DNA of 64,000 bases from Campylobacterales bacterium (GTDB lineage: Bacteria; Campylobacterota; Campylobacteria; Campylobacterales; QNZT01). Below are positions 39,909 through 43,078 of the stretch, piece by piece (within the stretch, counting starts at the first letter, position 1; every line of letters begins with the position of its first letter). Position numbers and translations under genes: made by a program. The DNA lies in contig JALVVR010000047.1 in the NCBI GenBank assembly GCA_027023305.1, positions 1 to 64,000 on the forward strand, read 5' to 3'. The notes beneath the pieces are model-generated. The model was not told the DNA's origin. It did no database searches and saw nothing but the letters and a program-made list of their open reading frames with translations.

Positions 39909-40146
39909 TGATTTTAAAAGAGCAGTGATAGAAGAAGACTTTAACAGTATTGAAATTTTACTAGATGATATTCCTCAGTTTAGTGATATAAGCAGTAGTG
40001 AGTTAGCACTTGGTTTGATAAATGAAGCTAGAGAAATCATAAGCAGACAAAAAGATGATGCCTTGTCTCAAATGCAAAAAATCCAAAAAACTAAAAAGTT
40101 TGTCCAAAGCAAAGAGAGTGCTTATAGCTTGGATATGAGCAGTTGA
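39895..40146 (+). CDS. Small helical protein, FliT-like by position
   Basis: An 83 aa (88 aa if GTG 39880 is used) alpha-helical protein immediately after fliS, where fliT-like chaperones commonly lie. No clear sequence signature; the pattern of a long C-terminal helix (ALSQMQKIQKTKKFVQSKES) is FliT-like. I favour TTG 39895 because GGAG sits six bases before it. It overlaps fliS by 14 bp and so is translationally coupled. The gene ends at the edge of the repeat bounding the next cassette. Confidence 0.6.
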   Translation: MKWLNDFKRAVIEEDFNSIEILLDDIPQFSDISSSELALGLINEAREIISRQKDDALSQMQKIQKTKKFVQSKESAYSLDMSS

Positions 40147-40197
40147 TAGTTAATAACTAATAGTGAATAGTGAACAGTGATAGAAATTTCACTATAC
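40143..40197 (+). repeat. Left flanking repeat of the EEP/KAP cassette
   Basis: A cluster of short related words (AGTTAATAACTAA, TAGTGAATAGTGAAC) ending in a 27-bp sequence (40169-40195) that recurs exactly at 43014-43040. Within it AGTGA...TTTCACT can form a small hairpin. It begins in the last codons of the fliT-like gene. The remaining 220 bp to 40416 hold no gene I can support, only a probable promoter before the EEP gene. Confidence 0.8.
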
Positions 40198-40416
40198 TTA
40201 CTTCAAAATCATAGTTAGTACCATATGTTATGGACTAATATAAAAAATAAGAAAATATGTTAGAATATGCTCTAAGTGATGTATTAAAAAATCAAAAAGT
40301 TCTTAAGTATTAAACTCATTAACATACTAATCAGTTATAGATTCCTCTAAAAAATGGTTCTTTGTATATGTATTTCTACTATAGAATTATAAGAGGAACA
40401 AGGGAAAAGGAGTTTT

Positions 40417-41115
40417 TTGAAAATATTAACATTCAACATCCAACATGGTGGAGGAACAAGAATATTAAAAATATTGGATAGTATTTTAAATCATAATCCA
40501 GATACCATTGTATTAACAGAATTTAGGCAAAATAAAAATGCAATAATAATAAAAGAAAGCTTATATAAAAAAGGATATATTTATAGTTGTTCATCATCTT
40601 TAGAGCAAAATAAAAATTCAGTTTTTATAGCATCTAGGTTTCATTTTATAACATCACTTTTTCCATTAGAATTAGAACAAGATACACATAGAGCAATATT
40701 TGCACAGTTTAAAAATATAAATATACTTGGTGTTTACTTTGCTCAAAAAGAATTAAAGATAAATTTATTTAACTTTATTATTGATAATTTTATTGAATTA
40801 TCAAATAATAATGGTTTGATAATTGGTGATTTTAATACTGGGAACTTTTATGAAGATGAAGAACATGCTACTTTTAGTTGTACATCTGAATTCAATAAAC
40901 TTAAATCAAATGGATTAATTGATTCTTGGAGAAGTAGAAATAAAGGTATAAAAGAATTTTCTTGGTATAGTCATGCAGGTAATGGATTTCGAATTGACCA
41001 TACATTTTCTACTAAGACAATTAATGAGAGAATAAAAAAAATATATTATTCACATAAAGAAAGAGAGCAAAAAATTAGTGATCATTCAGCTATGATAGTA
41101 GAAGTAGCTAACTAA
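40417..41115 (+). CDS. Endonuclease/exonuclease/phosphatase (EEP) family protein
   Basis: A 232 aa metal-dependent phosphodiesterase-fold protein. Catalytic motifs are LTFNIQHGG (Asn7), VLTEF (metal ligand E35), IGDFNTG (137-142), RIDHTF (192-197) and SDHSAMIV (221-228), so the active site appears complete. No signal peptide or extra domain: a minimal cytoplasmic EEP. The start is TTG after AAAAGGAGTTT. Substrate unknown (DNA, RNA or a phosphoester). It shares a repeat-bounded island with the KAP ATPase gene, 128 bp downstream. AT-rich, with ATA/AAA-heavy codon use. Confidence 0.82.
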   Translation: MKILTFNIQHGGGTRILKILDSILNHNPDTIVLTEFRQNKNAIIIKESLYKKGYIYSCSSSLEQNKNSVFIASRFHFITSLFPLELEQDTHRAIFAQFKNINILGVYFAQKELKINLFNFIIDNFIELSNNNGLIIGDFNTGNFYEDEEHATFSCTSEFNKLKSNGLIDSWRSRNKGIKEFSWYSHAGNGFRIDHTFSTKTINERIKKIYYSHKEREQKISDHSAMIVEVAN

Positions 41116-41243
41116 AATATATATAGTTAAAAGGACTAAATGTGCAAATAAGAGTATACCACAAAATTAATTGTTAAAATGAATATCAAATATATAGAAT
41201 TATGGGAAATTTCAACCCAAAAAATAAATTATAAAGGTATAAA

Positions 41244-42989
41244 ATGGCAAGTGTTGTAGATAAACCAAAAAAATCCTCACAAAGTGATTTGTTAGAAATA
41301 GAAAAATACACTAATGGCTTAATAAAATTTATAGAAAGCTCTGCTACTCCTATAACAATAGGTGTACAAGGTGAATGGGGAAGTGGAAAAACTTCTCTGC
41401 TTAATACTATAAAAGAGGACTTATGTGATAAAAATGGTGCTAAGCATTTTCCAATATGGATAAATACTTGGGAATACTCTCTTCTTTCTAGTCCTGATGA
41501 AACATTGATGAAAATAGTCATAGGGCTTGTTGATGAGATAGGAAAATTAACCAAAAACAATAATACTGAAAAAGCAAAAAAAGCATTAGCTTTAACAGGT
41601 ACATTACTAAAAAATTTTGGTGGTGCTATTGGTGGTGTTGCTGGAAAAGGTGTTGAAATAGCTGGAAAGCTTATTGAAGATAATACAAATGAGTCTCAAG
41701 ATAATTCTATAAAAGCACTTAGAAATGCTCTTCAAATAGTAGTAGATGAAGCTATTGAGACAAACAATAAAAGTTCATTTATTTTTTTCATAGATGATTT
41801 AGATAGATTAGAACCATCAGTTGCTGTTAGCATACTAGAACTTATTAAAAATCTTTTTGATTTAGAAAACTGTGTATTTATTCTTGCTATAGATTACGGT
41901 GTTGTTGTTAAAGGTTTACAGTCTAAGTTTGGAGTTCTTACTGAGGAAAATGAATGGGAATTTAGAGCATTTTTTGATAAAATCATACAATTACCTTTTT
42001 CAATGCCTATATCAAACTACAATATTTCTAAGTACTTACAGTCACTTTTAGTAGATGTAAATTATTTTAGTAAAAGTGATTTGGAAGATGAAGAATCTTT
42101 ATCGAAGATATCTGAAATAGTTGGTTTATCTGTTGGTACAAATCCTAGAACATTAAAAAGACTTGCTAACTCTGTTTCTCTTATAGAGATAATAAGAGGT
42201 GAACAAGTAATAACATCTGAGGAAAGAATTATAGAGTTTGCTTTGATTTGTATACAGATCGCTTATCCCTTTATATATGGTCTAATACAAAAAGAGTCAG
42301 ATTTTACAAACTGGAGTGAACAGCTTATATATAATGTGGTAAAAAACAACAAAATAGATGACAAAGACTTAGAAGCATTAAAAAACGAAGATGAATTTGA
42401 TGAAGAATGGGAACAAAACCTATGGAGAATGTGTCAAGTAAGTAGTTTCTTAAAACAAAGAACATATCAACTATCAAAACTTTTAAACTTTATAAAAGAT
42501 AATATTCCTAAAAATAAAGATGAGGATATTGGCGAAACACTTGATAGACTTTTAAGTATGTCTTCTGTCACAAGTGTTAGTGCAGATAATATGACAAATA
42601 CAACAAAGAAAAAACATCAAAAAACACACTTTGATACAATAGATGATTATCTTATAGAGAAGTCATATTTACCTAACGATATAGTAGAAAAATTAAAAAA
42701 TCTATTGAATGATATTATGTTACAATTGGAAGATGATGCTGTAATTACTTATTCACCTTCAGCAATAAATATTAAAACTCTAAATAGTAAAAATAAAATG
42801 AGAGCTATATCTTATATAAGACCATCTACAAAGAAAATCCATTTTTCTATACTAGATAGAAGTGGACATATTTCTTCACAATGTAAAGAAGTAAAATATG
42901 ATGGGAAATTTATAGGTGTTGAATTAAATGATGAAAATAATTTTGATTATGAGAGATATGTTCAGTTTTTTAAACAAATAGAAGACTGA
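41244..42989 (+). CDS. KAP-family P-loop NTPase
   Basis: A 581 aa protein of the KAP group of STAND-like P-loop ATPases. Walker A is QGEWGSGKTS (42-51). INTWEYSLL follows, as in the family. A Gly/Ala-rich insertion LLKNFGGAIGGVAGKG (about 121-136) lies where KAP proteins carry membrane-associated segments. Walker B is FIFFIDDLDRLEP (179-191), and LAIDYGVV and GTNPRTLKRLANS are later conserved blocks. The last 180 residues are variable and include RAISYIRPSTKKIHFSI. KAP ATPases are scattered in mobile and defence-related DNA; the job here is unknown. Confidence 0.85.
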   Translation: MASVVDKPKKSSQSDLLEIEKYTNGLIKFIESSATPITIGVQGEWGSGKTSLLNTIKEDLCDKNGAKHFPIWINTWEYSLLSSPDETLMKIVIGLVDEIGKLTKNNNTEKAKKALALTGTLLKNFGGAIGGVAGKGVEIAGKLIEDNTNESQDNSIKALRNALQIVVDEAIETNNKSSFIFFIDDLDRLEPSVAVSILELIKNLFDLENCVFILAIDYGVVVKGLQSKFGVLTEENEWEFRAFFDKIIQLPFSMPISNYNISKYLQSLLVDVNYFSKSDLEDEESLSKISEIVGLSVGTNPRTLKRLANSVSLIEIIRGEQVITSEERIIEFALICIQIAYPFIYGLIQKESDFTNWSEQLIYNVVKNNKIDDKDLEALKNEDEFDEEWEQNLWRMCQVSSFLKQRTYQLSKLLNFIKDNIPKNKDEDIGETLDRLLSMSSVTSVSADNMTNTTKKKHQKTHFDTIDDYLIEKSYLPNDIVEKLKNLLNDIMLQLEDDAVITYSPSAINIKTLNSKNKMRAISYIRPSTKKIHFSILDRSGHISSQCKEVKYDGKFIGVELNDENNFDYERYVQFFKQIED

Positions 42990-43010
42990 TAAATAGTAAA
43001 TACTTGGACT

Positions 43011-43078
43011 AACAGTGAACAGTGATAGAAATTTCACTATTCACTATTCGTTGTTCACTGTTAGTTATTAACTGTTTA
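43011..43078 (+). repeat. Right flanking repeat of the EEP/KAP cassette
   Basis: Contains the exact second copy (43014-43040) of the 27-bp direct repeat from 40169-40195. It continues into inverted words (AACAGTGAAC at 43011-43020 against GTTCACTGTT at 43053-43062, and TTAGTTATTAACTG as the inverse of the left-hand AGTTAATAACTAA). The whole block can fold into a long hairpin. Immediately after it lies the gatB promoter. Confidence 0.8.

What the first reader, a model, noticed from the sequence alone, without database searches (positions are those of the whole stretch)
40143..43078. Repeat-bounded two-gene cassette: EEP-family enzyme plus KAP ATPase, a candidate undescribed defence-like system
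Seen directly: an intact EEP-type catalytic domain (GDFN, SDH motifs) and a KAP P-loop ATPase (Walker A 42-51, Walker B 179-191) sit between the fliS/fliT-like genes and gatB. They are enclosed by exact 27-bp direct repeats (40169-40195 and 43014-43040), and neither gene relates to the neighbours. Family knowledge: KAP/STAND ATPases are often sensors in mobile and defence loci, and EEP enzymes cleave nucleic acids or phosphoesters. Inference: the ATPase senses a trigger and the EEP protein is the effector. The pairing is not one I know as a named system.
Basis: partly seen in the sequence, partly recalled or inferred. Interest (0 to 1): 0.72.

Follow-up and report, generated by a model that had tools for sequence, protein, structure and literature searches.

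The report
Inserted KAP ATPase beside exonuclease-like gene
A bacterial chromosome carries a small, apparently inserted stretch with an ATPase gene of a kind often found among anti-virus genes and, next to it, an unrelated DNA-exonuclease-like gene; the ATPase looks like an ordinary defence-type gene, and no sign was found that the two genes form a shared system.

Summary
Between fliS/fliT-like genes and gatB lie a 232-aa EEP (ExoIII-like) enzyme and a 581-aa KAP P-loop ATPase, bounded by an exact 27-bp direct repeat. Joining the outer flanks gives an 81-base imperfect palindrome, so the segment reads as an insertion into a hairpin. The interpretation as a two-gene system is not supported. Relatives of the ATPase occur patchily in Sulfurimonas-type MAGs, Sulfurospirillum, Flavobacteria and others; none of 75 KAP loci examined carries an EEP gene except the window's own. 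The recurrent neighbours are different: a ~175-aa two-helix membrane protein in four Campylobacterota loci, and a 99-aa repeat protein in four Flavobacteria loci among type I restriction or candidate-defence genes. The EEP gene has no orthologue in the Campylobacterota samples searched; the hits inspected are ordinary ExoIII. The ATPase matches defence-model families (PifA, PDC-S20, QatA), and its predicted fold is closest to RdrA of RADAR. Best reading: a horizontally acquired, PDC-S20/PifA-like KAP ATPase, probably defensive, with a divergent EEP nuclease as passenger or local accessory. New member of a known kind; the EEP-KAP pairing is a single observation.

The parts
40148..40195 (.). left boundary: left arm of a palindrome (40148-40168) plus the first 27-bp direct-repeat copy (40169-40195); begins 1 base after the fliT-like stop codon
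40417..41115 (+). EEP-family (ExoIII-like) enzyme, 232 aa, TTG start with AAGGAG upstream, catalytic residues intact
   Evidence: Pfam PF03372 8.2e-10; NCBIfam exoDNase_III 5e-17 but below cut-off; PDB 5ewt ExoIII 6e-4; catalytic columns
41244..42989 (+). KAP P-loop ATPase, 581 aa: conserved core (about 1-450) and a C-terminal domain of about 110 aa that differs between relatives
   Evidence: Pfam PF07693 2.5e-40; PADLOC PifA 2.7e-36, PDC-S20 9.5e-31, QatA 3e-24; alignment A1; AlphaFold model and Foldseek
43014..43073 (.). right boundary: second 27-bp direct-repeat copy (43014-43040) plus right arm of the palindrome (43041-43073)

Best explanation
The segment 40169-43040 is a horizontally acquired insert in the fliT-gatB intergenic region of a Campylobacterota genome. 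Its functional core is the KAP ATPase, a PDC-S20/PifA-like NTPase. I infer that it works as other defence KAP ATPases are thought to: the nucleotide-bound core oligomerises on a phage cue, and its C-terminal domain, which varies between relatives, sets what it senses or acts on; the outcome is block of phage growth. The EEP gene encodes an active-looking ExoIII-type nuclease that came with, or beside, the ATPase and is most likely a passenger or an occasional accessory, not an obligate effector. Shown: gene content, catalytic and Walker residues, repeats, patchy distribution, lack of EEP beside other KAP genes searched, defence context of several relatives. Inferred: defence activity, oligomerisation, sensing, direction of insertion.
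For: PADLOC families PifA, PDC-S20 and QatA match the core and the same families match relatives. Foldseek of the KAP model against the PDB returns RADAR RdrA for the 14 best hits, best E 4.5e-7. Relatives lie next to type I restriction subunits, PDC-S23, PDC-S26, PDC-M62A and DUF262-type genes in L056, L058, L059, L060 and L050. Distribution is patchy: 2 of 397 sampled Campylobacterota genomes besides the window's own at E 1e-25 or better, yet 64-73% identity to five MAGs titled Sulfurimonas or Helicobacteraceae. The same-genus genome G001 has fliD-fliS-fliT-gatB without the cassette. No EEP homologue in 75 KAP loci other than the window's own, nor next to the five nearest KAP relatives. GC of the EEP gene is second lowest of 52 window genes and its GC3 second lowest.
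Against: No experiment. KAP proteins also have non-defence roles. The window region is flagellar and housekeeping, not a defence island. PADLOC and QatA matches are to the shared ATPase core, so they do not prove the same function, and QatA is far below its NCBIfam cut-off (98.6 of 600 bits). The AlphaFold model is of moderate quality (pLDDT 70, pTM 0.49) and TM-scores to RdrA are low (up to 0.40).
Confidence: 0.6

Rival explanations
1. EEP and KAP form a genuine two-gene defence system that works like RADAR: the KAP ATPase assembles on a phage cue and recruits or activates the EEP nuclease, which then cuts nucleic acid.
For: Same strand, 128 bp apart, both inside the same repeat-bounded insert; KAP fold closest to RdrA, whose system pairs such an ATPase with a separate enzyme; EEP catalytic residues intact.
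Against: No EEP gene beside any of the other KAP loci searched; the closest KAP relatives (64-73% identity) lack it and four Campylobacterota loci have a membrane protein instead; the 128-bp gap (GC 0.195) does not suggest tight translational coupling.
Confidence: 0.17
2. The EEP protein is a DNA-repair or salvage nuclease (ExoIII/AP-endonuclease-like) of independent origin, and only the KAP gene was mobile; the two came together by chance at a tolerant intergenic site.
For: NCBIfam and PDB matches are to exodeoxyribonuclease III; the Streptomyces plasmid relative lies in an aminotransferase / formyltransferase / nucleotidyltransferase cluster, not a defence cluster.
Against: The EEP gene lies inside the same repeats and shares the low GC3 of the insert; it is not an orthologue of the Campylobacterota ExoIII genes inspected.
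Confidence: 0.35
3. The repeats are ordinary intergenic heptad (TAGTGAA) inverted-repeat hairpins, not marks of one insertion event; the two genes lie between two such elements that arose independently or by local duplication.
For: Similar heptad inverted repeats flank short segments between genes in G024, G084 and G108.
Against: Exact identity over 27 bp and the fact that the outer arms, not the inner ones, complete one palindrome favour a split single element; such elements are rare in this genome (5 hits with one mismatch).
Confidence: 0.3

Closest known systems
PADLOC PDC-S20 (single-gene phage-defence candidate, KAP type)
   Same: Match over residues 9-384 at 9.5e-31; relatives match equally well; single ATPase gene with variable neighbours
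   Different: C-terminal part (about 385-581) not covered by the model; PDC-S20 is itself only a candidate system
PifA (F-plasmid phage exclusion protein, KAP family)
   Same: Best PADLOC match, 2.7e-36, over the KAP core 6-313
   Different: PifA model is 720 positions long and only 8-315 are matched; chromosomal, not plasmid-borne
QatA of the Qat system
   Same: KAP core similarity, 3.7e-28 in NCBIfam
   Different: 98.6 bits against a cut-off of 600; no QatB, QatC or QatD genes beside it
RADAR (RdrA ATPase plus RdrB deaminase)
   Same: RdrA is the closest solved fold to the KAP model; two-gene ATPase plus enzyme layout
   Different: No RdrB; TM-scores at most 0.40; 13-15% identity
Tmn (KAP NTPase with two transmembrane segments; PMC11846954)
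   Same: KAP family, single ATPase gene
   Different: No strong transmembrane segment in the window protein (highest 19-aa hydropathy 1.8) and no Tmn match listed in PADLOC
Exodeoxyribonuclease III / Xth
   Same: Same superfamily and full set of catalytic residues
   Different: 25-29% identity, 62.3 bits against a cut-off of 182.55, shorter by about 25 aa with a missing loop after the GDFN motif

Membership tests
KAP P-loop NTPase (PF07693) | match above Pfam gathering score with Walker A and B | tested here: met
   139 bits against 20; motifs invariant in 16 relatives
KAP P-loop NTPase (PF07693) | transmembrane segments inserted in the NTPase domain (seen in many KAP proteins; family knowledge) | tested here: inconclusive
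   Insert at about 105-150 is glycine-rich, predicted with low confidence (pLDDT below 50 at 121-153) and not strongly hydrophobic
PDC-S20 | match to PADLOC PDC-S20 models | tested here: met
   four models, best 9.5e-31; PADLOC score thresholds were not shown
PifA | match over the whole protein | tested here: not met
   only 8-315 of 720 positions
Qat | QatA above curated cut-off, with qatBCD alongside | tested here: not met
   98.6 of 600 bits; neighbours are EEP, fliT-like and gatB
RADAR | RdrA plus RdrB adenosine deaminase | tested here: not met
   neighbour is an EEP enzyme; no RdrA/RdrB PADLOC match
Exodeoxyribonuclease III | score above NCBIfam equivalog cut-off | tested here: not met
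   62.3 of 182.55 and 58.4 of 99.05 bits
EEP superfamily | Pfam match and catalytic residues | tested here: met
   39.2 bits against 24.5; catalytic columns invariant
Xer/dif-type integration site | repeat resembling dif, difH | tested here: not met
   at best 16 of 28 matches, no better than the 95% point of random window segments (dif sequences from PMC2731167)
anti-phage defence system | protection against phage | not testable with these tools
   needs plating assays

The most novel reading that the evidence does not exclude
An undescribed two-gene defence system in which an RdrA-like KAP ATPase activates an ExoIII-like EEP nuclease, carried as a minimal cassette inserted into an intergenic palindrome.
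Probability: 0.12. Interest if true: 0.65.

Novelty: new member of a known kind. Interest (0 to 1): 0.3.

Why it matters
If the ATPase is defensive it adds to the KAP class of candidate single-gene defences and shows how such genes may move: as small inserts without their own recombinase into intergenic hairpins. The variable C-terminal domain on a constant ATPase core, and the different partner genes in different lineages, would make KAP sensing or effector choice testable. If the EEP partnership were real it would be a new nuclease arm for RADAR-like ATPases, but the present evidence does not support that.

Tried and rejected
Co-occurrence of EEP and KAP: searched 75 KAP loci with an EEP profile and with the EEP protein; none but the window's own (the first version of the profile was wrongly built from a concatenated file and was redone). 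Viral contigs with either protein: no relatives. Phage records: no EEP match, three weak KAP matches. Plasmids: only partial KAP matches and six Streptomyces/Embleya EEPs. Xer/dif integration: rejected. Other copies of the repeat in the genome as an insertion-element family: none. RNA family in the region: only a sub-threshold chance match. Membrane partner elsewhere in the own genome: not found, without a positive control. EEP structure: single-sequence model useless (pLDDT 35), not used. Promoter scan: no more sites than in shuffles. Literature: Tmn was the one experimentally tested KAP system found; no paper found that pairs KAP with EEP.

Full report
What is there. The window lies on a 96-kb contig of a 1.82-Mb genome in 73 contigs. 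Its species was not identified; gene content and the nearest relatives (MAGs titled Sulfurimonas and Helicobacteraceae) point to Campylobacterota. After fliD, fliS and a fliT-like gene, and before gatB, lie two genes on the + strand: 40417-41115, an EEP-family enzyme of 232 aa, and 41244-42989, a KAP P-loop ATPase of 581 aa. The fliT-like call rests on position; Pfam gives no hit for that 88-aa ORF.

The boundaries. The 27-bp direct repeat is real and unique: longest in shuffles 17 bp, only exact repeat of 20 bp or more in the window, core found twice in the genome even with three mismatches allowed. Outside the repeats the flanks are inverted repeats of each other. Joining 40148-40195 to 43041-43073 gives an 81-base hairpin (z -8.6). 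The simplest reading is a palindrome whose centre was duplicated on either side of an insert. The right copy also folds well on its own, so the alternative of two independent hairpin elements is not excluded. Heptad inverted repeats of the same kind flank short segments in G024, G084 and G108, and 9 of 119 sampled genomes contain the exact 14-mer, so this is a type of intergenic element that occurs elsewhere in the phylum. The repeats do not resemble dif or difH. No empty site from the same species is available: the one same-genus genome (65% complete) has fliT and gatB adjacent, with neither cassette nor palindrome, and other family members have other genes upstream of gatB. Assembly error cannot be excluded but nothing suggests it.

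The ATPase. Relatives found in one scan of 84,980 genomes fall into a close group (five MAGs, 64-73% identity over the alignment) and a wide group (Sulfurospirillum, an alphaproteobacterium, Flavobacteria, Prevotellaceae, Halorhodospira, Izemoplasmatales; 29-38%). In Campylobacterota it is rare: 2 of 397 sampled genomes besides the own at E 1e-25 or better. All share residues 1 to about 450; the remaining part differs: a two-helix plus sheet domain in the window protein and its nearest relatives, weakly DUF5655-like in L053 (0.001, below Pfam's cut-off), a methyltransferase in L061, and others. Defence context is direct for several relatives: type I specificity, methylase and restriction subunits, PDC-S23, PDC-S26, PDC-M62A and DUF262-type genes lie within a few kilobases. 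PADLOC families PifA, PDC-S20 and QatA match. The predicted structure, of moderate quality, is closest to RdrA, followed by Orc/Cdc6-type AAA+ proteins.

The EEP protein. It keeps the catalytic set of ExoIII but scores far below the ExoIII cut-offs. In samples of 199 and 397 Campylobacterota genomes (overlapping) only weak hits of 23-34% identity were found; the fourteen inspected from the first sample are ordinary ExoIII-type genes in housekeeping surroundings. Its best matches elsewhere are Streptomyces plasmid proteins that share the ending ISDHSAM; one was inspected and lies in a biosynthesis-like cluster. Its substrate cannot be told from sequence. Its GC and GC3 are both second lowest among 52 window genes; the KAP gene is less extreme (GC rank 12, GC3 rank 5), so the two genes may differ in origin.

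Are the two a system? Not on this evidence. An EEP profile and the EEP protein itself were run over 75 KAP loci (406 kb; some genomes appear twice, two loci are the window itself): the only hits are the window's own. What does recur next to this KAP group is a ~175-aa protein with two membrane helices in L048, L049, L050 and L055, and a 99-aa repeat protein in four Flavobacteria. Limits: most flanks were 1.5 kb, the EEP has hardly any close relatives to follow, and only one whole-collection scan was allowed.

How it most likely works. Inferred, by analogy with KAP/RdrA-type defence ATPases: the ATPase assembles when its core or its C-terminal domain meets a phage cue and then blocks phage growth, alone. 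The EEP enzyme is probably a passenger or an occasional helper. None of these steps has been shown here.

Novelty. The ATPase is a new member of a known kind (KAP, PDC-S20-like). The EEP-KAP neighbourhood is new only as a single observation.

Noticed in passing
L048:2650-3168, L049:9805-10350, L050:9758-10312, L055:5861-6400: A ~175-aa protein with two membrane helices recurs next to this KAP group in Campylobacterota; it matches no Pfam or PADLOC family and is a better candidate partner than EEP.
   Followed up: partly
L056:7688-7987, L058:7689-7988, L059:7662-7991, L060:7692-7991: A 99-aa protein with internal repeats (YLETYD...GKRIKR) stands directly upstream of the KAP gene in four Flavobacteria loci (L059's ORF is listed as 109 aa from an upstream start).
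   Followed up: partly
KAP relatives L048-L062, C-terminal part: The part after about residue 450 is exchanged between relatives on a constant ATPase core, including a methyltransferase domain in L061.
   Followed up: partly
L131, L132, L133 (G024, G108, G084): Heptad inverted repeats (TAGTGAA)n / (TTCACTA)n flank short variable segments between genes in other Campylobacterota.
   Followed up: partly
L050:591-2885: A second KAP gene lies about 5 kb upstream of the first in the same Sulfurimonas MAG.
   Followed up: no
L098 (Streptomyces europaeiscabiei plasmid): EEP protein with the same ISDHSAM ending, within an aminotransferase / formyltransferase / nucleotidyltransferase cluster that has a second EEP gene.
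   Followed up: no
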